In this document: piece by piece, positions 27,345 to 42,259 of the stretch
How positions within the stretch are numbered: position 1 is the first letter of the stretch
Layout of the letters: each line of letters begins with the position of its first letter
Origin: Solirubrobacterales bacterium
Lineage (GTDB): Bacteria; Actinomycetota; Thermoleophilia; Solirubrobacterales; 70-9
Direction: 5' to 3'
DNA: 46,824 nucleotides
NCBI GenBank assembly: GCA_017882505.1
Contig: JADGPJ010000012.1
Location: 1-46,824 of the forward strand
Made by a program: the position numbers and the translations under genes
The notes under the pieces: model-generated
The model's input: the letters and a program-made list of their open reading frames with translations, nothing else
Database searches by the model: none
Told to the model about the DNA's origin: nothing

Positions 27345-29060
27345 TCAGCCGCCGAGACCGGGGACGGGGTGGCCGTACCTGACGACCGCGCACTTGAAGG
27401 GGGGCGGGTCGAACGGATCGGTCAGAGCGCGGCCGGTCGAGTTGCCCCGGACGGGCTTGCCTCTTTTCGGCAGCGGGCCGGGGGCGCACTGGACCGACTT
27501 GTCGCGAACGCCGTCGCGGGCGTCGATCACGTCTTCGCCGCCGTTGCCGAAGAACTCGTCTTCGCCGGGCTGGCCGAGCATGCTGTTGGCGCGCCCGTCG
27601 CCGATCAGGACGTCGTTGTCGAAAGAGCCCTCCATGTCCTCGTCGGTGCGGGAGAGATGGACCCGCTTGCAGTTCTTGACCGTGGTCACGTAGGCGACGT
27701 GCCTTGGGAAGGAGATGATCAGCAGGCCCGGGTGCGCCTTGGTCTCCGCGAAGGAGGCATCGTCACGGCCCGGGCCGCCGACCAAAGCGCCCCCGGCGCA
27801 GCCCCCGCCCGCCGCGAGCAGGTCGCCGTTGGGGCCGCCGTAGAGGTAGGTCGGCCCCGGCAGGCCGCCGACCAGCCCGTCGGCCCCGGCGCCGCCGTAT
27901 AGACGATCGCTGCCGCGGCCGGACTCGATCAGATCGTCCTCGGGGCCGCCGTGGATGACGTCGTTGCCGTCGCCACCGGCGATCCGCACCCCGCCGACGG
28001 CGAGCAGCGAGCCTTCGACCCGCAGGCTGTCGTTGCCGGGACCGAGGTCGGCCATCAGCCAGCGCCCCGGCCCGTTGGCCGGGCACGAGACCTGATTGGA
28101 GACACCGGGTGGCCGGGTGCAACCGGAGCTGACCGCGAGGCTCTTGGCGGCCGTCACCCCGAAGGTGTCGGTCGTTTCGTCGAAGGCGACCGCGATGTCG
28201 TCGCTTCCGGAGCCGCCGATGATCTCCAAGCCGGAGCCGCCGGCCGAGGTCGGATCGAGCTGGACGTAGGCCGAGCCCTTCGGCGGCCTTTCCTTGCCAC
28301 AGGAGACCGTCCGGCCCTTGGCGCCGGTGCAGCTGTCGCTGCCCTGGCCGCCGTCGATGAAGTCGTGACCTCCGCCGCCGGTCAGGTGGTCGTCGCCGGG
28401 GCCGCCGTCGATCGCGTTGCCCTGCTTGTCGCCGATCAGGGTGTCGCGGAATCCCGAGCCTTCGAGGCTCTCGAAGCCGAACAGCCTGTCGTGGCCGTCG
28501 CCGAGGGCACGGTGGGCCTTGAGCGAGGCCCAGACGCCGTCACCCTTTCCCCCGGCCACCGCGGTCGCGAAGGAGGCGATGTCCCCCTTGCCGGCACCGC
28601 CCGACATCCGGTCCCAGCCGTAGTCGCCGTGGATCAGGTCTTCGTTGCCGGGGCCGCCGTTGACGATGTCGATGCCGAGGTCGCCGGCGACGTCGTCGCC
28701 GTTGCCGGAACCGCCGAGGACCTTGTCGTCGCCGAGGTCTCCGTTGACCTGATCGCCGTTGCCGGCGCCGCCGTCGACTTCGTCATTGCCGCGGCCACCG
28801 TGGATCAGGTCGGCGCCGGGCCCGCCGCAGAGCAGGTCGTTGCCGAGGCTGCCGTAGATCGCGTCGTCGCCCTTGCCGCCCCAGATCACGTCGCGGCCCG
28901 GCGTGCCGTGGATCACGTCGTTGCCGTCGGTGCCGACGATCGTCGCCTGACGCCCATGACAGCGGGGATTTTCGAGCTGCTCGTTCAGGGCCGCGCTGGC
29001 GAGCGCCGCGAAGGCGGCGAAGGCCGCCAGCGCGGCGAGAACTCCGATCCGAAGCTTCAT
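27345..29060 (-). CDS. secreted RTX-like calcium-binding repeat protein
   Basis: A 571-aa protein with a signal peptide (MKLRIGVLAALAAFAAF, cleavage near residue 24). Two blocks of glycine/aspartate nonapeptides follow, at about residues 43-250 (GTDGNDVIHGTPGRDVIWGG and on) and 350-510 (GDGNDVIHGGPEDDLIESGR and on). Such GGxGxDxUx repeats form calcium-bound beta rolls. Scattered cysteine pairs (about C34/C78, C243/C254) hint at disulfides. No toxin or enzyme domain and no type I secretion genes are seen, so a structural or adhesive surface role via the general export route is likeliest. It starts 9 nt after the dehydrogenase stop. Confidence 0.88.
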   Translation of the reverse strand: MKLRIGVLAALAAFAAFAALASAALNEQLENPRCHGRQATIVGTDGNDVIHGTPGRDVIWGGKGDDAIYGSLGNDLLCGGPGADLIHGGRGNDEVDGGAGNGDQVNGDLGDDKVLGGSGNGDDVAGDLGIDIVNGGPGNEDLIHGDYGWDRMSGGAGKGDIASFATAVAGGKGDGVWASLKAHRALGDGHDRLFGFESLEGSGFRDTLIGDKQGNAIDGGPGDDHLTGGGGHDFIDGGQGSDSCTGAKGRTVSCGKERPPKGSAYVQLDPTSAGGSGLEIIGGSGSDDIAVAFDETTDTFGVTAAKSLAVSSGCTRPPGVSNQVSCPANGPGRWLMADLGPGNDSLRVEGSLLAVGGVRIAGGDGNDVIHGGPEDDLIESGRGSDRLYGGAGADGLVGGLPGPTYLYGGPNGDLLAAGGGCAGGALVGGPGRDDASFAETKAHPGLLIISFPRHVAYVTTVKNCKRVHLSRTDEDMEGSFDNDVLIGDGRANSMLGQPGEDEFFGNGGEDVIDARDGVRDKSVQCAPGPLPKRGKPVRGNSTGRALTDPFDPPPFKCAVVRYGHPVPGLGG

Positions 29061-29069
29061 CGGGTGGGA

Positions 29070-30437
29070 TCAGGCGCTGCGGATCAGCTTCTTGTTGACG
29101 AACTCGTCGGCGCCGAAGCGGCCGAGCTCGCGGCCGAAGCCGGAGCGCTTGAAACCGCCGAACGGCAGCTCGGGGCTATCCGCCCCGACCAGATTGATGT
29201 AGACCATTCCGGCTTCGATCTTGTCGGCGACCCGCTCGCCCTGCTCCTTGTCGGTGGTCATCACGTAGGAGCCGAGGCCGAACGGGGTCTGGTTGGCGAG
29301 GGCAACCGCCTCCTCCTCGGAGCCGACTCGATAGACCTGGGCCACGGGACCGAAGAACTCTTCCTGGGACGCCTCGTCGCCGGGTTTGATTCCGGTGAGG
29401 ATCGTCGGTTCGAAGTAGTTGCCGTCGCGCTTGCCGCCGACGACGACCTCGGCCCCGTTGTCGACAGCCTTCTTGACCTGCTCCTCGAGCCGGTCGGCCG
29501 CCACCTCCGAGGAGAGCGGCCCGACGGCCGTGTCCTCGGCGGTGGGGTCGCCCGGCTTCGACGCGGCCAGCGTCGCGGTGAACTTCTCGAGGAACTCGTC
29601 GTAGAAGTCGTCGACGACGATGAAGCGCTTGGCGGCGTTGCAGGACTGGCCGGTGTTGTCGAGCCGCGCTTCGGCGGCCGCCTGCACGGTCGCGTCGAGG
29701 TCGTCCGTCCCGAGCAGGATGAACGGGTCCGAGCCGCCGAGCTCGAGCACGACCTTCTTCAGGTTGCGCCCGGCGATTTCGGCGACGGCGGCGCCGGCGC
29801 GCTCGGAGCCGGTGACCGAGACGCCGTGCAGGCGCGGGTCGGCGATCACCCACTCGATCTGCTCATTCGTCGCGTAGATGTTCTCGTATGCCCCCTCGGG
29901 GAAGCCGGCGTCGCTGAACATCTGCGCCATCGCCTCGGCCGATTCCGGGCACTGCGACGCGTGCTTGAGCAGGATCGGATTTCCGATCACCAGGTTCGGC
30001 CCGGCGAAGCGGGCGACCTGGTAGTAGGGAAAGTTCCAGGGCATGATTCCGAGCAGGACGCCGAAGCTGCCGCGGCGGACCACCGCTGTGCCCTCGCCGC
30101 CGAGCAGCTCGATCGGTTCGTCGGCCATCAGGGCCTCGGCGTTATCGGCGTAGTAGGCGTAGATTTCGGCCGCGAAGTCGACCTCCATCAGCGCCTGCTC
30201 GATCGGCTTGCCCATCTCGCGGACGATGATCTCGGCCAGCTGCTGACGCCGCTCGCTGTGGAGCTCACCAACCTTGCGCACCAGAGCGGCGCGCTCCGCC
30301 ACCGTGGAGGAGCCGGACCAGGTCCGGGAAGCCTCCTCGGCCCGGTCGATCGCGGCGCGGAGATCGGCGTCGCCGATCCCTGGATACTCCTTGATCGTCT
30401 CGCCCGTGGCTGGATTGACTACCGCGTAAGTGTTCAT
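29070..30437 (-). CDS. aldehyde dehydrogenase (succinate-semialdehyde/4-aminobutanal type)
   Basis: A 455-aa NAD(P)-dependent dehydrogenase. It has GIMPWNFPYYQVARF (catalytic Asn in PWNFP), GSERAGAAVA (cofactor loop), the general-base Glu in VLELGGSDPF, and the nucleophilic Cys in TGQSCNAAKRFI. The length and start (MNTYAVVNPATGE) fit the short GabD/YneI-like succinate-semialdehyde dehydrogenases. Being last in the aminotransferase - PucR - alanine dehydrogenase operon, it would oxidise the aldehyde made by the aminotransferase, for example 4-aminobutanal or succinate semialdehyde. The exact substrate is inferred. Confidence 0.93.
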   Translation of the reverse strand: MNTYAVVNPATGETIKEYPGIGDADLRAAIDRAEEASRTWSGSSTVAERAALVRKVGELHSERRQQLAEIIVREMGKPIEQALMEVDFAAEIYAYYADNAEALMADEPIELLGGEGTAVVRRGSFGVLLGIMPWNFPYYQVARFAGPNLVIGNPILLKHASQCPESAEAMAQMFSDAGFPEGAYENIYATNEQIEWVIADPRLHGVSVTGSERAGAAVAEIAGRNLKKVVLELGGSDPFILLGTDDLDATVQAAAEARLDNTGQSCNAAKRFIVVDDFYDEFLEKFTATLAASKPGDPTAEDTAVGPLSSEVAADRLEEQVKKAVDNGAEVVVGGKRDGNYFEPTILTGIKPGDEASQEEFFGPVAQVYRVGSEEEAVALANQTPFGLGSYVMTTDKEQGERVADKIEAGMVYINLVGADSPELPFGGFKRSGFGRELGRFGADEFVNKKLIRSA

Positions 30438-30496: not shown

Positions 30497-31654
30497 TCAG
30501 ACCTCGGCCGCCTCCGTGCCCGCCGTCTCCCGCCCCTCGAGGCCCAGGGCCTCCTCGACCGGCACGTAGTCCACCCCGACTCCCTCCGCCACCGCCGGGT
30601 GGGTCACCTTGCCGGCGGCGACGTTGACGCCCGGGCGCAGGCCCGGGTCGCGCCGGATCGCCTCGATGACGCCGTGGTCGGCAAGCGCGATCGCGTAGGG
30701 CAGCGTCGCGTTGGTGAGGGCGTGGGTGGAGGTGATCGGGACCGCGCCGGGCATGTTGGCGACGCAGTAGTGAGTGATCCCGTCGACCTCGAAGGTCGGC
30801 TTGCGGTGGGTCGTCGGCCGCGAGGTCTCGAAGCAGCCGCCCTGATCGATCGCGACGTCGACCAGCACCGCCCCGGGCTTCATCAGCGCCAGCTGGTCGC
30901 GGCGGACGACGAACGGCGCCCGCGCCCCGTGGACGAGGACGGCGCCGATCACGAGGTCGGCGCGGGGCAGCATCTCCTCGACCGCGAGCGTGGTCGAGTA
31001 GACGGTCGAGCAGCGACCGCCGAAAGCGACCTCAAGCTCGCGCAGGCGGTCGATCGAACGGTCGAAGACGAAGACGTCGGCCTCCATCCCGATCGCGATG
31101 AAGGCGGCATTCATGCCGACGACGCCACCGCCGATCACCATCACGTTGGCGGCGGCGACGCCGGGAACGCCGCCGAGCAGGATGCCGCGGCCGCCGAGCG
31201 GCTTCTCCAGCATGAAGGCGCCGGCCTGGGTGGCGATCTTGCCGGCGATCTCGCTCATCGGCGCCAGTAGCGGCAGCCGGCCGTGCGCGTCCGCGACCGT
31301 CTCGTAGGCGATGCAGGTCGCGCCCGAACCGCAGAGGCCGCGGGTCTGCTCGGGGTCTGGAGCCAGGTGCAGGTAGGTGAAGAGCAGCTGTCCCGGCCGC
31401 AGCATCTCGATCTCCGTCGGCTGCAGCTCCTTGACGTGGAGGATCATCTCGGCCTGGGCGAAGATCGCGGCGGCGTCGGCGACGATGCTGGCGCCCTGGG
31501 CTTCGTAGTCGGCGTCGGCGATGGCGCTGCCGTTGCCGGCGCCGGCCTGGACCAGCACCTGATGGCCGTGCTCGTTCATTTCGCGGACGCCGGCCGGCGT
31601 CACCGCGACCCGGTACTCGTCCAACTTGATCTCGGTCGGGATTCCAATCTTCAC
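30497..31654 (-). CDS. ald: alanine dehydrogenase
   Basis: A 385-aa NAD-dependent enzyme interconverting alanine and pyruvate plus ammonia. It starts VKIGIPTEIKLDEYRVAVTP; the catalytic Lys (MILHVKELQP) and His (FTYLHLAPD), the NAD loop VIGGGVVGMNAAFIAIG, DVAIDQGGC and THRKPTFEVDGI are all canonical. The GTG start at 31654 overlaps the regulator's stop by 4 nt. In this operon it can regenerate pyruvate from the alanine that the neighbouring aminotransferase produces, releasing ammonium. Confidence 0.95.
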   Translation of the reverse strand: MKIGIPTEIKLDEYRVAVTPAGVREMNEHGHQVLVQAGAGNGSAIADADYEAQGASIVADAAAIFAQAEMILHVKELQPTEIEMLRPGQLLFTYLHLAPDPEQTRGLCGSGATCIAYETVADAHGRLPLLAPMSEIAGKIATQAGAFMLEKPLGGRGILLGGVPGVAAANVMVIGGGVVGMNAAFIAIGMEADVFVFDRSIDRLRELEVAFGGRCSTVYSTTLAVEEMLPRADLVIGAVLVHGARAPFVVRRDQLALMKPGAVLVDVAIDQGGCFETSRPTTHRKPTFEVDGITHYCVANMPGAVPITSTHALTNATLPYAIALADHGVIEAIRRDPGLRPGVNVAAGKVTHPAVAEGVGVDYVPVEEALGLEGRETAGTEAAEV

Positions 31655-33207
31655 GCGATCAACTCCCTCGCTCGCAGGGCCAGCCAAAACTCGATTCGGT
31701 CGTGCGCGCGCGAGAGGTCGCGGCCGGTCAGCTCCTCGACCTTGCGCATCCGGTAGCGCAGCGTGTGACGGTGGCAGTAGACCTCGCGCGCCGCGCGCTC
31801 CCACTGGCCGTTCTGCTCGATGAACGCCTCCAGCGAGCGCAGCAGCTCGCCGCCGTACTCCTGGTCGCCCTGCTCGATCGGCCCGAGGACGCTGTCGCAG
31901 TAGAGACCCAGCGCCTCGTCGTCCTGGATCGAGAGCAGCAGCGTGAAGGCGCCGAGGTCGCGCCAGGAGGCGACCTCGGGGGCGGAGCCGTTGTCGAAGG
32001 AGGTCGCCTCGAGCGCGCAGCGGGCTTCGTGGAAGGAGTGGCGCAGGCTCTCCGGCGAGGCCGGGCGGCTGGCGGCGGCGCGGACGGCGCCGCGTTCGGG
32101 GCTGAGCGCCCGGCGGGCGTCGGCGGCGACGTCGATCGGGTCGCGGTCGGCGGCGTCGACGACGGCGCAGAGCAACTCGCGACCGCCGGACACGTGGGGG
32201 GCGACGACGGCCGGGCAGGCGTCGGCGGCGAGCGCCCGTTCCAGCGCTCCTGCCGCCGCGGCAGGGTGGTCGAGAGCGAACACAAGCACCGCCGCTTCCT
32301 CGCCGATCCCGAACGGCTCCAGGCGCCGGCGCAGCTCTGTCGCCTCCATCCGCCCGCCCAGCGCCCCCGCGAGGACGTCGCCGGCGAGGCGCCGCTCGGT
32401 CTCGCGGGCGACCCGGCGCCGCATCAGCTCGAGGGCGACGACGGCGACGGCCTGCTGCAGGATCAGCCGCTCGAAGTCACCGAGCCCGCCCGAGTCGCGG
32501 ACGATCACCACCCAGGCCTGCGGCGGCCCGCCGCCGGGTGAGATCACCGGGTGGGCCAGCGCCCGGCCGGCGACCGAGGGGTGGGAGGGAACGAAGGGCA
32601 CGCCGTCGACGGCGTGCCCGAGGGCCTCCTTGCGGATGCCGCCGATCGCGTCGGCGGAGAGCTGGCGGCGGAAGCCGCGCCCGGCGAGGCGCTCGCCGCG
32701 GCCGTCGAGGATCGCCACCGTGCCGCCGACGGCCGAGGCGATCGTCGCCGCGATTTCCTCCAGGCCGCGCTCCTCCAGGACCAGCCGCTCGAGCCGTCGC
32801 TGCACCGCGATCCCGCGCTGCAGGACCTCGTACTGCTCGTTGACCAGGCGGGCGAAGGCTTTCTCGGTGATCGCGATGAACGGCGTCGAGTAGGGGACCT
32901 CGAACAGCGGGAAGTCCCGTTTCTCCGCCTCGTCGATCAGTGCCTTCGGCAGCTTGTCGTGGCTGAAGCCGGTGCCGAAGCCGAGCCCGGCGAGGTTGCA
33001 GTCGGCGAGGATGCGGACGAAGGAGCGCTGCTTGGCGGCGGTGTCGAGCGGGATGCCTGTGGTCAGCATCAGCTCGCCGCCGGAGAGCCACGGCGTCGGG
33101 TCCTGCAACTCGGAGATATGTACCCAGCGGACCGGCGCCGCGGCGGCCTTGGAGCCGGCCGCCAGGTCGAGATCGAGCTCATCGAGCAGGCTCTGGACAG
33201 TGAGCAC
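31651..33207 (-). CDS. PucR/CdaR-family transcriptional regulator
   Basis: A 518-aa regulator. The N-terminal PucR (purine catabolism regulator-like) domain spans about 1-130 with LSGGELMLTTGIPLDTAAKQ and FPLFEVPYSTPF. A central GGDEF-like/GAF-type region follows, and the C-terminal HTH_30 contains NGQWERAAREVYCHRHTLRY. Such proteins usually activate catabolic genes on sensing a metabolite. It sits inside the operon, 8 nt after the aminotransferase and overlapping ald, so it probably controls its own unit via the repeated boxes at 34652-34744. The start is GTG 33207; the long frame upstream is antisense shadow of the aminotransferase. Confidence 0.9.
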   Translation of the reverse strand: MLTVQSLLDELDLDLAAGSKAAAAPVRWVHISELQDPTPWLSGGELMLTTGIPLDTAAKQRSFVRILADCNLAGLGFGTGFSHDKLPKALIDEAEKRDFPLFEVPYSTPFIAITEKAFARLVNEQYEVLQRGIAVQRRLERLVLEERGLEEIAATIASAVGGTVAILDGRGERLAGRGFRRQLSADAIGGIRKEALGHAVDGVPFVPSHPSVAGRALAHPVISPGGGPPQAWVVIVRDSGGLGDFERLILQQAVAVVALELMRRRVARETERRLAGDVLAGALGGRMEATELRRRLEPFGIGEEAAVLVFALDHPAAAAGALERALAADACPAVVAPHVSGGRELLCAVVDAADRDPIDVAADARRALSPERGAVRAAASRPASPESLRHSFHEARCALEATSFDNGSAPEVASWRDLGAFTLLLSIQDDEALGLYCDSVLGPIEQGDQEYGGELLRSLEAFIEQNGQWERAAREVYCHRHTLRYRMRKVEELTGRDLSRAHDRIEFWLALRARELIA

Positions 33208-33215
33208 TCGCGCCC

Positions 33216-34595
33216 CTAGCGGACGACTCGGTCCCAGGCCTCGGCGAGAACGGTGCTGAGCACGTCGTGGATCTCTTCGAACTGCTCGGTGTCGGCGATC
33301 AGCGGCGGCGCCAGCTGGACGACGGGGTCGCCGCGATCGTCGGCACGGCAGATCAGGCCACGCTTGTAGAGCTCGCCGGAGAGGAAGCCGCGCAGCAGTT
33401 CCTCGGACTCCTCGTCGTTGAAGCTTTCCTTGGTGTCCTTGTCTTTGACCAGCTCGACCGCATGGAAGTAGCCGGCGCCGCGCACGTCGCCGACGATCGG
33501 CAGCTCGTGCAGGCTCTCCAGCATCTGCCGGAACTCGCCCTCTTTGGCGAGCACGTGCCCGCAGAGATCCTCGCGCTCGTAGACGTCGAGGTTGGCCATC
33601 GCGATCGCGGAAGCGATCGGGTGGCCGGCGAAGGTGAAGCCGTGGGCGAAGGAGGCGTCCCCCTCCATGAACGGCTCGGCGACCCTGTCGGAGGCGATCA
33701 CGCCGCCCATCGGCGCGTAGGCCGAGGTCAGCGCCTTGGCGACGGTGATGATGTCCGGGACGTAGCCGAAGCGATCGCAGCCGAAGTAGTGGCCGAGACG
33801 GCCCCAGGCGCAGATCACCTCGTCGGAGATCATCAGCACGTCGTGGCGGTCGCAGATCTCGCGGACCTGCTGGAAGTAGCCGTCGGGCGGGACGAAGCAG
33901 CCACCGGCGTTCTGGACCGGCTCGAGAATCACCGCGGCGACGGTGTCGGCGCCCTCGAATTCGATCCGCTCCTCGATCGCGTCCGCCGCCCAGAGCGGGT
34001 GACGGTCCTCGGGCCAGCGGTAGATGTTGGTGTTCGGCACGTGGCATCCGCCCGGCGCCAACGGCTCGAACTGGCTGCGCAGCTCGGTGATTCCGGTCAC
34101 CGAGAGGGCTCCCAGGGAGGTGCCGTGGTAGGCGATCTCGCGGGCGATCGTCTTGAACTTCTGCCCTTTGCCGTGCATGCGGTGGTAGTTGCGGGCGAGC
34201 TTCAGCGCCGACTCGACCGCCTCCGAGCCGCCGCTGGTGAAGAAGACCCGGTTGAGGTCGCCCGGCGCCAGCGAGGCGATCCGGGCGGCGAGTTCGATCG
34301 CCCGCGGGTGGGCGTAGCTCCAGAGCGTGAAGAAGTCGAGCTCTTCGACCTGGCGGGCGGCGGCCTCGCCGTACTCGGTCCGCCCGTGGCCGGCGTTGAC
34401 GCAGAAGAGGCCGGAGAGGCCGTCGAGGTAGCGCTTGCCGTGCTCGTCGTAGACGTAGCAGCCCTCGGCGCGGGTGATGATCGGGATCTCGTGCTCGGCG
34501 CCATAGCCGCCCATCCGCGAGAAATGCATCCAAAGGTGGTCCCGGGCCAGTTTCTGAAGTTCGGTGCCTACTGGGGTCTGCGACGCGGTGGCCAT
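33216..34595 (-). CDS. class III aminotransferase (omega-amino acid/putrescine:pyruvate type)
   Basis: A 459-aa PLP enzyme. Key parts are GYGAEHEIPIITRAEGCYVY, FFTSGGSEAVESALKLARN (phosphate cup), AAVILEPVQNAGG, ISDEVICAWGRLG (Asp to the pyridine nitrogen) and TVAKALTSAYAPMGG with the PLP lysine. Subgroup III members move terminal amines from putrescine, beta-alanine or GABA to pyruvate. The neighbours (alanine dehydrogenase, semialdehyde dehydrogenase, polyamine-type importer) support an omega-amine donor and alanine as product. ATG 34595 follows GAGGAG. First gene of its operon, divergent from the APC permease. Confidence 0.92.
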   Translation of the reverse strand: MATASQTPVGTELQKLARDHLWMHFSRMGGYGAEHEIPIITRAEGCYVYDEHGKRYLDGLSGLFCVNAGHGRTEYGEAAARQVEELDFFTLWSYAHPRAIELAARIASLAPGDLNRVFFTSGGSEAVESALKLARNYHRMHGKGQKFKTIAREIAYHGTSLGALSVTGITELRSQFEPLAPGGCHVPNTNIYRWPEDRHPLWAADAIEERIEFEGADTVAAVILEPVQNAGGCFVPPDGYFQQVREICDRHDVLMISDEVICAWGRLGHYFGCDRFGYVPDIITVAKALTSAYAPMGGVIASDRVAEPFMEGDASFAHGFTFAGHPIASAIAMANLDVYEREDLCGHVLAKEGEFRQMLESLHELPIVGDVRGAGYFHAVELVKDKDTKESFNDEESEELLRGFLSGELYKRGLICRADDRGDPVVQLAPPLIADTEQFEEIHDVLSTVLAEAWDRVVR

Positions 34596-34629
34596 GCCGC
34601 TCTCCTCTCGTACTACGACGATATGGACA

Positions 34630-34658
34630 AAGCTAGTCCCAGGATGGCACAGGCGCAA
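34630..34658 (-). promoter_or_regulatory. promoter of the aminotransferase operon
   Basis: On the minus strand TTGCGC (complement of 34653-34658) and TAGCTT (complement of 34630-34635) are separated by exactly 17 bp. The -35 lies inside a CCACTTGCGCC box. Expected transcription start is near 34623, leaving a leader of about 28 nt with a good Shine-Dalgarno. Confidence 0.55.
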
Positions 34659-34662
34659 GTGG
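34652..34662 (+). promoter_or_regulatory. regulator box 1, GGYRCAAGTGG
   Basis: GGCGCAAGTGG is one of three copies of an 11-bp motif in this intergenic region that differ only at positions 3 and 4. Its complement covers the -35 of the minus-strand promoter. Confidence 0.55.
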
Positions 34663-34699
34663 TCGTTGGGTCAAGCGCGGGCGGCGCACTTATACACAA

Positions 34700-34710
34700 G
34701 GTACAAGTGG
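34700..34710 (+). promoter_or_regulatory. regulator box 2, GGYRCAAGTGG
   Basis: GGTACAAGTGG is the middle copy, in the same orientation as box 1 and 48 bp from it. With box 3 it forms an inverted pair with an 8-bp core (CAAGTGGC/GCCACTTG). It has no -10 at proper spacing, so it is likely a pure binding site. Confidence 0.55.
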
Positions 34711-34733
34711 CAACTGTGCCTTTGGGACATTCG

Positions 34734-34744
34734 CCACTTGCACC
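34734..34744 (-). promoter_or_regulatory. regulator box 3, GGYRCAAGTGG (reverse)
   Basis: CCACTTGCACC on the plus strand covers the -35 of the APC permease promoter, in the same relative position that box 1 has on the opposite promoter. Confidence 0.55.
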
Positions 34745-34766
34745 GTGGTGCTCTGGGGCATACGGT
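34738..34766 (+). promoter_or_regulatory. promoter of the APC permease operon
   Basis: TTGCAC at 34738-34743 and TACGGT at 34761-34766 are separated by 17 bp. The leader to the TTG start at 34819 would be about 45 nt and has GAGGAG at 34805-34810. Confidence 0.5.
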
Positions 34767-34818
34767 CGCCGGAAAGTAGAACCGGCTCGTGGCAGAGCCG
34801 TAGAGAGGAGACGGACCG

Positions 34819-36363
34819 TTGGAGAGCGCCGCAGTTCCCGCTTCGGGTGCCCCGGCGGCCGCCGGCCCGGAAACCGGCGACAAGGGTCTGAAGAAGAACG
34901 CGATCGGCTTCGTCTCCAGCGTCGTCATCGGCGTCGCCTCGACGGCGCCGGGCTACAGCCTCGCCGCGACCCTCGGCTTCGTCGCCGCCGCCGTCGCCCT
35001 GCAGTCACCGGCGATCCTGCTGATCAGCTTCGTCCCGATGTTCCTGGTCGCGGGCGGCTACTACTACATGAACAAGGCGGACCCGGACTGCGGCACCAGC
35101 TTCTCCTGGGTGACCAAGGCGATGGGCCCGCAGCTCGGCTGGATCTCCGGCTGGGCGATCGTCGTCGCCGACATCATCGTGATGGCCAACCTGGCCCAGA
35201 TCGCCGGCCTCTACAGCTTCGAGCTCGTCAGCTGGCACGCCGCGGCGGAATCCACCGTCGCCGTGACCGCGGTCGGGGTGATCTGGATCGTGATCATGAC
35301 CGCGATCGTGGTGATCGGTATCGAGCTCTCGGCCCGCACCCAGGTCGGGCTGCTCACCGCCGAGATCTTCACCCTGGCGCTGTTCTCGATCGTCGCCCTG
35401 GTCAAGGTCTACTCGGGCAGCGCCCCGTCCGCCTCGGTCCACCCCAGCCTCTCTTGGATCAACCCCTTCTCGCTGAGTCCAAGCCAGATCTCGGCGGGGA
35501 TGCTCTTAGCCGTGTTCATCTACTGGGGCTGGGACACGACCGCGACGGTCAACGAGGAGACCGAGGATCCGGGCGAGGCGCCGGGCAGAGCGACGGTGAT
35601 CAGCACCGTGATCCTGCTCGGCATCTACATCGTCGTCGCCGTCGCCGCGCAGGCCTACGCCGGCGTCCACAACCTCGTCGCGAACCAGGAAGACGTGCTC
35701 AGCTCGCTCGGCACCGAAGTCTTCGGCTCGCCGCTGGACAAGCTCCTGATCATCGCCGTGCTGACGTCGGCGGCGGCCTCCACGCAGACGACGATCCTGC
35801 CCACCGCCCGAACTACGCTCTCAATGGCCCGGGCGCAGGCGATGCCGGAGAGCCTCGGCAGGGTCCACCCCCGCTTCCTCACCCCGCACATCTCGACGAT
35901 CCTGATGGGCGGGCTCTCGATCGCGTGGTACGTCGGATTGACGATCTTCAGCGAAGACATCCTCTTCGACTCGCTCGCCGCGCTCGGGTTGATGATCGCC
36001 TTCTACATCGGCATCACCGGCTTCGCCTGCACCATCTACTACCGTCGCGAGCTGATGCGCAGCGTCAAGAACTTCTTCTTCATCGGCGTCGGCCCGACGG
36101 TCGGCGGCCTGATCCTCTTCTACCTGCTGATCAAGAACGGGATCGAACTCGCCGACCCGGCCAACTCCGAATCGGGCAACTCGTGGTTCGGCATCGGCCC
36201 GCCGCTGGTGATCGCCGTCTTCTTCCTGCTTCTGGGAATCTTCCTGATGGTGATCCAGTGGCGCAAGGTCCCCGCCTTCTTCAAGCGCCGGCCCGAGGTC
36301 GTGCCGGCCGGCTTCCTCGAGGGCGAAGTGGAGCCACCCGGCCCGACCGGGGTGGGTGAGTGA
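34819..36363 (+). CDS. APC-family amino acid/amine permease
   Basis: A 514-aa membrane protein with about 12 hydrophobic helices. The N-terminal GVASTAPGYSLAATLGF is the unwound TM1 substrate/ion motif of APC transporters; other landmarks are GWISGWAIVVADIIVMANLA and VFIYWGWDTTATVNEET. It probably imports amino acids or diamines by proton symport. TTG 34819 has a Shine-Dalgarno at 8 nt; no better start exists before TM1. The stop overlaps the universal stress protein start (TGATG). Divergent from the aminotransferase operon. Confidence 0.93.
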   Translation: MESAAVPASGAPAAAGPETGDKGLKKNAIGFVSSVVIGVASTAPGYSLAATLGFVAAAVALQSPAILLISFVPMFLVAGGYYYMNKADPDCGTSFSWVTKAMGPQLGWISGWAIVVADIIVMANLAQIAGLYSFELVSWHAAAESTVAVTAVGVIWIVIMTAIVVIGIELSARTQVGLLTAEIFTLALFSIVALVKVYSGSAPSASVHPSLSWINPFSLSPSQISAGMLLAVFIYWGWDTTATVNEETEDPGEAPGRATVISTVILLGIYIVVAVAAQAYAGVHNLVANQEDVLSSLGTEVFGSPLDKLLIIAVLTSAAASTQTTILPTARTTLSMARAQAMPESLGRVHPRFLTPHISTILMGGLSIAWYVGLTIFSEDILFDSLAALGLMIAFYIGITGFACTIYYRRELMRSVKNFFFIGVGPTVGGLILFYLLIKNGIELADPANSESGNSWFGIGPPLVIAVFFLLLGIFLMVIQWRKVPAFFKRRPEVVPAGFLEGEVEPPGPTGVGE

Positions 36364-40002: not shown

Positions 40003-40862
40003 GCGGCGAGAGCACGCGGGCGCGGACCTGGCGCTGGCTGCGCGAGCACGCGGTCAACATCGTCGCCGGGCTGGTGGTCCTGTACCTGCTGATCCCGATC
40101 GCGGTCATCTTCGTCTTCTCCTTCAACAACCCGGCTGGTCGCTACAACTACACCTGGGTCGGCTTCACTCTCGAACACTGGGCACACGCCTTCGGCCGCG
40201 AAGACCTGACCGAAGCGCTGCTGACCAGCCTCAAACTGGCGCTGCTGGCGACGGTGATCTCGACGAGCGTCGGGACGATGATGGCGCTGGCGCTCGTCCG
40301 CCACAAGTTCTTCGGCCGCCGCGCCGCCAACTTCCTGATCGTGATCCCGATGGCCACCCCGGAGGTCGTAATGGGCGCCGCCCTGCTCTCGTTCTTCCTC
40401 ATCCTCGGCAGCCCGTCGCTCGGCTTCGAAACGCTGCTGATCGCCCACGTGATGTTCTGCATCAGCTTCGTCGTCGTCGTCGTCCGCTCGCGGCTGATCG
40501 GCTTCGACCGCAGCCTCGAGGAGGCGGCCAAGGATCTCGGCGCGACCGCGTTTACGACCTTCCGGCTGATCACGCTGCCGCTGATCCTGCCCGGCATCTT
40601 CGGCGGCGCGATGCTCGCCTTCGCGCTCTCGATCGACGACTTCGTGATCTCCAACTTCAACTCGGGGACGACCGTGACCTTCCCGCTCTACATCTTCGGC
40701 GCCGCCCAGCGCGGGATCCCGGTCGAAGTCAACGTGATCGCGATGATCCTCTTCTTCGCGACGGTCAGCGCCATGGGGTTCGTCACCTGGCAGCAGCGCC
40801 GCGCGGAAAAGATGGCCTCAGTCCGACCGGATCAAGAGGAGATCGTCGTAGTACCCGCCTAG
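39999..40862 (+). CDS. potC: ABC transporter permease, PotC type
   Basis: A 287-aa second permease. Its EAA loop reads EEAAKDLGATAFTTFRLITL, then SIDDFVISNF, typical of PotC. The GTG start overlaps potB by 4 nt (GTGA). The stop TAG shares a CTAG tetramer with the stop of the convergent oxidoreductase. Confidence 0.93.
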   Translation: MSGESTRARTWRWLREHAVNIVAGLVVLYLLIPIAVIFVFSFNNPAGRYNYTWVGFTLEHWAHAFGREDLTEALLTSLKLALLATVISTSVGTMMALALVRHKFFGRRAANFLIVIPMATPEVVMGAALLSFFLILGSPSLGFETLLIAHVMFCISFVVVVVRSRLIGFDRSLEEAAKDLGATAFTTFRLITLPLILPGIFGGAMLAFALSIDDFVISNFNSGTTVTFPLYIFGAAQRGIPVEVNVIAMILFFATVSAMGFVTWQQRRAEKMASVRPDQEEIVVVPA

Positions 40863-42259
40863 CGGCCGATGTGGAAGCCGATCAGCTCGGGGACCTTCGC
40901 CGCCGCGGACGCAAGCTTTCCCGGGGCCTTACCGGCCATCTCGGCCTCCTCCTTGGCTTGGATGCCGAGGCGGATCGCTTCGCCGCCGATCCAGTGGAAG
41001 GGCTCAGGGGGGACCCTGGGTGTCGCGCCGTCGATGAAGGCGAGGTTGGTGGAGTCGTCGCGCCTGTCCAGCGCTAGGGCGGCGAGGCTGCGGCCGACCA
41101 TGTTGGTCGGGCCGACGCCGTTGCCGGTGTAGCCGGCAGCGGCAAAGGCGCGGCCGTGGCGCAGAGAACGAATCTCCGGCAGGTGGGTCGGCGAGGCGTC
41201 GATAGGACCGCCCCAGGCGTGGGTGATGCGCTTGCCACGCAGGCCGGGGAAGTAGTCGTAGAGGTGGGCGGCGGTGGCCGCGATGACGGCGGCGTCGACC
41301 TCGGCGCGACCCTTCGTCCTCGCCCCCATCGCGATCCGGCCGCCACCCCAGCCGAAGGCGATGCGGCCGTCCGGAGTGGTGCGGAAGTAGTCGAGCAGGG
41401 CGCGGCAGTCGGTGATGCACTCGCCGCCGTCCCAGCCGACCTGCTCGAGCAGCTCGGGCACCGGCTCGGTCAGGACCATGTGGGATGAGGCGACGGTGAG
41501 GCGGCCGCGCAGCGGGCCGTGCCGTCCCTTGGCGGCGCTGCCGATCGCGAGCACGGCTCGTCCGGCGCGCACCGAGCCGCCCTCGGTCCTGGCCTCGACC
41601 CCGTCCGCGCCTTCGCGGAACGAGCGCACCGCCGAGGACTCGAAGATCTCGACGCCCGCAGCGCGCAGCCGGTCACGCAGACCCAGCGCCAGGCGGGCCG
41701 GCTGCACCGTCGCCGAGCTGGGGCAGACGGCTCCCTCGCGGAAGACGGGAGACGCGCAGCGCTCGGCAACCTCGGCGCGGGTGAGCGGGCGCATCGCCTC
41801 CGGCATCCCGAGCTCGCGGCAGGCCTCCAGCGCCGCCAGCCAGGCGCCGTCGTGCGCCGCCGCGGTCGAGACCTGCATGTAGCCGGCGGGACGGAACCAG
41901 GCGTCGACCTCCTCGCGCTCGCAGAACTCGGCGATCCGCCCCACCGCCTGCTCGGCGGCGACGGCGATCGCCAGCGCCGCCTCGTCCCCCCAGCGCCCGC
42001 GCAGCGACGGAAGCGAGATCCACATCGCGTTGCAGAAGCCGCCGTTGCGGCCGCTCGGCCCGTGCCCGCAGACCTCCTCCGCCTCAAGCAATACGACCCG
42101 GGCCTCGGGCTCGAGCTGGCGCAGGTACCAGGCGGTCCAGAGCCCGGTGTAGCCGCCGCCGACGACGAGCGCGTCGGCCTCGCGCTCGCCGGCCAGGGAC
42201 GCCCCGGGGGCGACCTCGCCGGCCTCTTCGATCCAGTAGCCGAGCCGCGTGTGCTTCAT
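40859..42259 (-). CDS. DAO-family FAD-dependent oxidoreductase
   Basis: A 466-aa flavoenzyme of the D-amino-acid-oxidase/glycine oxidase superfamily, close in layout to gamma-glutamylputrescine oxidase (PuuB/OrdL). The dinucleotide motif is DALVVGGGYTGLWTAWYL, followed by GHGPSGRNGGFCNAMW (FAD contact), a SHMVLTEPVP strand and the late GYTGNGVGPTNMVGR motif. It would oxidise an amine or amino acid with oxygen. Position beside the Pot importer supports an amine substrate. No PuuA-like ligase is present, so a gamma-glutamylated substrate is doubtful. Confidence 0.88.
   Translation of the reverse strand: MKHTRLGYWIEEAGEVAPGASLAGEREADALVVGGGYTGLWTAWYLRQLEPEARVVLLEAEEVCGHGPSGRNGGFCNAMWISLPSLRGRWGDEAALAIAVAAEQAVGRIAEFCEREEVDAWFRPAGYMQVSTAAAHDGAWLAALEACRELGMPEAMRPLTRAEVAERCASPVFREGAVCPSSATVQPARLALGLRDRLRAAGVEIFESSAVRSFREGADGVEARTEGGSVRAGRAVLAIGSAAKGRHGPLRGRLTVASSHMVLTEPVPELLEQVGWDGGECITDCRALLDYFRTTPDGRIAFGWGGGRIAMGARTKGRAEVDAAVIAATAAHLYDYFPGLRGKRITHAWGGPIDASPTHLPEIRSLRHGRAFAAAGYTGNGVGPTNMVGRSLAALALDRRDDSTNLAFIDGATPRVPPEPFHWIGGEAIRLGIQAKEEAEMAGKAPGKLASAAAKVPELIGFHIGR

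What the first reader, a model, noticed from the sequence alone, without database searches (positions are those of the whole stretch)
34596..34818. Three-box operator controlling mirror-image promoters of the amine operons
Seen: GGYRCAAGTGG occurs at 34652, 34700 and 34734 (reverse). Two copies sit exactly over the -35 (TTGCRC) of divergent promoters with 17-bp spacers to TAGCTT and TACGGT. The middle copy pairs with the third. Inference: the PucR-type protein encoded in the operon binds these boxes and co-regulates both directions, with looping possible between boxes 48 bp apart.
Basis: partly seen in the sequence, partly recalled or inferred. Interest (0 to 1): 0.6.

Follow-up and report, generated by a model that had tools for sequence, protein, structure and literature searches.

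The report
PucR operator centred between mirror-image promoters
Between two amine-use operons lies one palindromic switch site, exactly midway between two outward-facing promoters and conserved across a whole bacterial order; the regulator encoded in the operon very probably binds it to turn both operons on together.

Summary
The three GGYRCAAGTGG boxes are real and non-random: only 5 exact copies in the 2.63 Mb genome, 3 of them here. The two divergent promoters are also supported. The "three-box operator" is not. In 28 orthologous intergenic regions the 11-mer itself is not kept. Boxes 1 and 3 are the -35 regions of the two promoters (TTGC, 17 bp to a TANNNT -10). Box 2 is one arm of a different element, the palindrome TTGTAC-N5-GTACAA (window 34690-34706, one mismatch). 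Its centre, 34698, is exactly 40 bp from the first base of both -35s and 63 bp from both -10s. The same offsets, plus an extra TTG at 24 bp on each side, recur in almost all relatives with a divergent polyamine-transporter or permease gene. The divergent half is missing where that neighbour is absent. Exact palindromes are rare (17 in 201 genomes of the order); 15 lie in front of this operon. In other classes, pucR homologues at 39-45% identity carry the same palindrome about 30 bp upstream of pucR itself. I conclude that the operon's PucR-type protein binds this palindrome and co-activates both operons, with a probable second site over the aminotransferase start site. Binding and activation are inferred, not shown.

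The parts
34690..34706 (.). Main operator O2: palindrome TTATAC-ACAAG-GTACAA (reverse strand TTGTACCTTGTGTATAA); dyad centre 34698
   Evidence: Top hit of an unbiased inverted-repeat search (25 of 57 regions vs 0.17 expected); only site with <=1 mismatch in the genome; conserved order-wide
   Evidence: TTG at 40 (+-1) bp from the dyad centre in 27 of 29 loci
34630..34635 (-). -10 (TAGCTT) of the aminotransferase-operon promoter
   Evidence: TANNNT at 63 (+-1) bp in 28 of 29 loci
   Evidence: TTG at 40 (+-1) bp in 26 of 29 divergent loci; none of 8 loci without pot/permease at 39-41
34761..34766 (+). -10 (TACGGT) of the divergent promoter
   Evidence: TANNNT at 63 (+-1) bp in 24 of 29 divergent loci; none of 8 loci without pot/permease
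34669..34674 (-). Flanking half-site-like TTGACC, TTG 24 bp from the dyad centre
   Evidence: TTG at 24 (+-1) bp in 22 of 29 loci; typical offset about 1.4
34722..34727 (+). Mirror flanking element TTGGGA, TTG 24 bp from the dyad centre on the other side
   Evidence: TTG at 24 (+-1) bp in 19 of 29 loci; typical offset about 1.0
34614..34630 (-). Probable second, weaker site O3: TTGTCC-ATATC-GTCGTA over the -10 and predicted start of the aminotransferase promoter; centre 34622
   Evidence: Order-wide consensus TTGTMC-RNARC-GTCGA at this position, also in loci with a weak O2
34652..34744 (.).
33216..34595 (-). Class III aminotransferase (omega-amine/polyamine:pyruvate type)
   Evidence: Pfam PF00202; NCBIfam; PDB relatives
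31651..33207 (-). PucR-type regulator (PucR + GGDEF_2 + HTH_30)
   Evidence: Pfam
30497..31705 (-). Alanine dehydrogenase; the called frame overlaps the pucR 3' end, so the true start is probably slightly downstream of 31705
   Evidence: TIGR00518 above cut-off
29070..30437 (-). Aldehyde (succinate-semialdehyde-like) dehydrogenase
   Evidence: PF00171; NF006915 best hit, below cut-off
34819..36363 (+). APC amino acid/polyamine permease, first gene of the divergent operon
   Evidence: PF13520
36360..40862 (+). Universal stress protein, then PotA, PotD, PotB, PotC polyamine ABC transporter

Best explanation
The region is a bidirectional control region with one main operator. A dimer or higher oligomer of the PucR-type protein encoded in the left operon binds the palindrome TTGTAC-N5-GTACAA (34690-34706). 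The palindrome sits on the symmetry axis of two outward promoters, centred about 75 bp upstream of each predicted start, so one bound complex can activate both: uptake genes (APC permease, Usp, PotADBC) to the right, and catabolic genes (amine:pyruvate aminotransferase, pucR, alanine dehydrogenase, aldehyde dehydrogenase) to the left. TTG-bearing half-site-like sequences at +-24 bp may be extra contacts toward each -35. A weaker copy over the aminotransferase start site (O3) probably lets the regulator limit its own operon. Shown here: sequence, spacing, conservation, co-occurrence with pucR. Inferred: binding, activation, autoregulation, inducer (a polyamine or omega-amino acid).
For: Unbiased inverted-repeat search over 57 regions puts TGTAC-N5-GTACA first (25 vs 0.17 expected), with TGTCC-N5-GGACA also high (13 vs 0.37). 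Exact palindrome 17 times in 201 genomes of the order: 15 lie in front of the aminotransferase-pucR operon, the other two inside unrelated genes. Both sides show TTG at 24, TTG at 40 and TANNNT at 63 bp; the position profile's best mirror axis is the dyad, with the core excluded. Divergent-side -10 in 24/29 divergent loci vs 0/8 others, P about 3e-5; in most of those 8 the upstream gene looks co-directional. pucR homologues elsewhere in the phylum carry the palindrome close upstream of pucR itself: 40 sites with spacer 5 vs 0-4 for other spacers and 2 for the reversed control, with a nearly unchanged recognition-helix region. Known PucR-type proteins mostly activate and mostly bind inverted repeats: GabR two 21 bp, PutR 17 bp, AdeR 24 bp (PMC7652997); MabR is dimeric/tetrameric and compatible with a palindrome in adjacent major grooves (PMC11617747).
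Against: No binding, footprint or expression data. O2 is weak or unrecognisable in several loci that keep pucR (L042, L043, L061, L099 and much of family f2), and absent near pucR in L156, L158, L159 and L161. Phylum-wide, 22 of 35 exact palindromes are not beside pucR, about the chance level of the reversed control. Start sites are predicted, not mapped.
Confidence: 0.77

Rival explanations
1. One reading: PucR binds three GGYRCAAGTGG boxes, two of them over the -35s, with looping between boxes 48 bp apart.
For: Three exact copies in 93 bp, non-random; same 34/48-bp spacing with copies of at most one mismatch in L033 and L047.
Against: 11-mer not conserved in 29 loci; box 2 flanks vary while the far palindrome arm is kept; other exact genomic copies are a likely -35 of an unrelated gene and a coding sequence.
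Confidence: 0.06
2. The palindrome is bound by a different, unlinked regulator (for example a nitrogen or polyamine regulator of another family), and pucR is a passenger.
For: Binding was not tested; TTGT...ACAA palindromes are used by several regulator families (general knowledge).
Against: The palindrome follows pucR into other classes, where it lies upstream of pucR itself; only one site with <=1 mismatch in the genome argues against a global regulator; spacing differs from GlnR/TnrA TGTNAN7TNACA (consensus in PMC9894248).
Confidence: 0.12
3. PucR binds O2 but mainly represses: O2 and O3 hold RNA polymerase off the promoters until the amine appears.
For: O3 overlaps the -10 and predicted start of the aminotransferase promoter; in other classes the site lies about 30 bp before pucR, close to its start.
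Against: O2 lies upstream of both -35s, an activator position; nothing like O3 was seen at the divergent start; characterised PucR-type regulators are activators except B. subtilis PucR, which does both (PMC7652997).
Confidence: 0.13

Closest known systems
GabR of Corynebacterium glutamicum (PucR-type activator of gabTDP; PMC7652997)
   Same: PucR-type regulator next to aminotransferase, aldehyde dehydrogenase and permease genes; binds inverted repeats upstream of the -35; local regulon
   Different: GabR lacks the GGDEF-like domain and binds two 21-bp repeats in front of one catabolic promoter; here one main palindrome lies midway between two operon promoters and pucR is inside the catabolic operon
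AdeR (alanine dehydrogenase) and PutR (proline use) of Bacillus subtilis, as cited in PMC7652997
   Same: PucR-type activators of amino-acid catabolism with inverted-repeat sites (24 bp and 17 bp); AdeR controls ald, and this operon holds ald
PmfR of plasmid pAO1 (PucR-type activator of purU-mabO-folD)
   Same: Best NCBIfam hit for the N-terminal part (NF045769); activator in catabolism of a GABA derivative (PMC3891541)
   Different: No TTGTAC-N5-GTACAA near pmfR on pAO1 (best 3 mismatches); far below the model cut-off, so not a PmfR

Membership tests
PucR-type transcription factor | N-terminal PucR domain (PF07905) | tested here: met
   E 3e-30, 105 bits vs cut-off 33.5
PucR-type transcription factor | C-terminal HTH_30 (PF13556), GGDEF-like domain between | tested here: met
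   HTH_30 76.8 bits vs cut-off 27; GGDEF_2 30.2 vs 24.5
PucR-type operator (inverted repeat upstream of the controlled promoter) | Conserved inverted repeat upstream of the -35 of the target operon | tested here: met
   TTGTAC-N5-GTACAA
PucR-type operator (inverted repeat upstream of the controlled promoter) | Bound by the PucR protein | not testable with these tools
   Only co-occurrence with pucR across classes
PucR-type operator (inverted repeat upstream of the controlled promoter) | Regulator activates on inducer | not testable with these tools
   Position about -75 is activator-like; inference only
   At most one mismatch in 3, 7 and 3 of 29 loci
Divergent housekeeping-type promoters | -35/-10 pairs at fixed spacing, conserved on both sides | tested here: met
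   the strict consensus scan alone finds none
PmfR or AdeR orthologue | NCBIfam score above model cut-off | tested here: not met
   111 vs 800 and 41 vs 700 bits

The most novel reading that the evidence does not exclude
The region is a strictly two-fold symmetric, activator-driven bidirectional promoter: one PucR oligomer on a central palindrome, helped by mirror contact sites at +-24 bp, engages two RNA polymerases at identical distances, so that uptake and catabolism rise in fixed proportion; selection keeps the symmetry for as long as the neighbour is divergent.
Probability: 0.3. Interest if true: 0.6.

Novelty: new member of a known kind. Interest (0 to 1): 0.42.

Why it matters
It gives a testable operator sequence for a PucR subfamily found in several classes of the phylum; few PucR-type sites are characterised. 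It also offers a clean natural comparison: relatives without the divergent transporter keep the catabolic promoter but lack the mirror half. This lets one ask how one activator serves two promoters at once.

Tried and rejected
Strict sigma-70 scan: no promoter. Rfam: no RNA element in 34400-35000. Using 396 kb of the genome plus the window to show that ACTTGC is a general -35: too few pairs, inconclusive. TGTCC-N5-GGACA beside box 3 as a separate operator: good only near the window's own genus; farther away only CCYAAAA remains, so not claimed. Exact palindromes in G176 and G198: inside unrelated genes. The palindrome near more distant PucR proteins on plasmids (pAO1, Rhodococcus, Arthrobacter, Paracoccus, Rubrobacter): not found, so the site belongs to this subfamily. 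The AdeR paper was not held. No structure prediction was run, since a monomer model would not test binding.

Full report
OBSERVATION. The window belongs to a 2.63-Mb Solirubrobacterales-type genome. The region 34596-34818 separates a minus-strand operon (class III aminotransferase, PucR-type regulator, alanine dehydrogenase, aldehyde dehydrogenase) from a plus-strand operon (APC permease, universal stress protein, PotADBC). GGYRCAAGTGG is exact at 34652(+), 34700(+) and 34734(-), with nothing closer than two mismatches elsewhere in the window. The genome has five exact copies. Of the other two, one is inside an acyl-CoA dehydrogenase gene; the other reads TTGCGC-16-TATACT, ten bases before the likely start of an mIHF-type gene, i.e. 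it looks like a -35.

ORTHOLOGUES. pucR orthologues were collected from 201 genomes of the order and from named contigs. Upstream regions were fetched, oriented on the aminotransferase and aligned or compared without gaps. The 11-mer is not conserved. Conserved instead are a central palindrome CTTGTAC-N5-GTACAAG and, outward on both sides, TTG at 24 bp, TTG at 40 bp (-35) and TANNNT at 63 bp (-10). In the window the dyad centre is 34698 and the -35s start at 34658 and 34738, exactly 40 bp each way. Across 29 loci with a divergent pot or permease gene, within one base: aminotransferase side 22, 27 and 28; divergent side 19, 26 and 24; typical offsets 0.2-1.4. With the palindrome core excluded, the best mirror axis of the position profile is the dyad itself, about 3.8 standard deviations above the mean over 61 axes. 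An unbiased inverted-repeat count ranks TGTAC-N5-GTACA first, 25 of 57 regions against 0.17 expected. The loci are related to one another, so these counts overstate independence.

NATURAL COMPARISON. In 8 loci without an adjacent pot or permease gene, the aminotransferase -10 stays (7 of 8), while the divergent -10 and -35 are absent (0 of 8; P 3e-5 and 4e-6). In most of these the upstream gene looks like a co-directional membrane-protein gene. The divergent first gene itself varies: permease-Usp-pot in the window, L047, L033 and L041; pot directly in most others. The control region thus outlasts changes in which gene comes first.

WHO BINDS. The exact palindrome occurs 17 times in 201 genomes of the order. 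By comparing coordinates lie just upstream of the aminotransferase-pucR operon; the other two are inside unrelated genes. In the own genome, 34690-34706 is the only site with at most one mismatch. In other classes, where pucR (39-45% identical) is divergent from a more distant aminotransferase, the same palindrome lies 27-33 bp before pucR, often with a second site about 51 bp upstream. Spacer 5 gives 40 sites against 0-4 for other spacers from 2 to 10 and 2 for the reversed pattern. The recognition-helix region RHTLRYRMRKVEELTG is unchanged in most of these proteins despite nearly 60% overall divergence. Across 397 genomes of the phylum, 13 of 35 exact sites lie within about 60 bp of a pucR start; the rest look like chance (compared). 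More distant PucR proteins on plasmids, including PmfR of pAO1, lack the site.

SECOND SITE. TTGTMC-RNARC-GTCGA overlaps the -10 and predicted start of the aminotransferase promoter throughout the order (window TTGTCC-ATATC-GTCGTA, 34630-34614). Its left half resembles a palindrome arm. It may be a weaker PucR site used for autoregulation, or part of the promoter; I cannot tell which.

MECHANISM (inferred). PucR-type regulators are mostly activators and mostly bind inverted repeats (PMC7652997); MabR forms dimers and tetramers compatible with a palindrome in adjacent major grooves (PMC11617747). A PucR complex on O2, at about -75 of both starts, would activate uptake and catabolism together. 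The enzymes fit import of a polyamine or omega-amine, transamination with pyruvate, aldehyde oxidation, and recycling of alanine to pyruvate and ammonia by alanine dehydrogenase. The inducer is unknown.

VERDICT. The promoters and the choice of regulator are supported. The operator sequence was misread and is corrected here. It is a new member of a known kind (PucR-type inverted-repeat control), with an unusually symmetric and well-conserved layout.

Noticed in passing
L049:4936-5129: Array of GGTGCAYGTGG-like units in direct and inverted orientation plus a repeated AGAGTCTTGCGCTAAACCCG unit, between the aminotransferase and a distant pucR.
   Followed up: no
window 40859-42259: FAD-dependent oxidoreductase whose best NCBIfam hit is the 'putative aminophosphonate oxidoreductase' model (below cut-off); it lies convergent to potC and recurs near this locus in L033, L038 and L046.
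   Followed up: partly
window 27345-29060: Protein with many GGxGxD-type (RTX-like calcium-binding) repeats just beyond the end of the aldehyde dehydrogenase gene.
   Followed up: no
L139-L155: In other classes two palindromes about 51 bp apart precede pucR (TTGTAC-N5-GTCCA-type upstream, perfect one near the start), resembling the two-site layout of C. glutamicum GabR.
   Followed up: partly
L106, in the 75 bp upstream of its O2-like site: Long inverted repeat TAAGGGGATGTCCTGCC ... GGCAGGACATCCCCTTA just upstream of the palindrome position, perhaps a terminator.
   Followed up: no
L169:2205-2420: Rubrobacter pucR fragment pair with repeated TTGTAC half-sites (CTTGTACAGGTCTTTTGTACG) near its start, next to alanine dehydrogenase: the half-site may be shared more widely in a different arrangement.
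   Followed up: no
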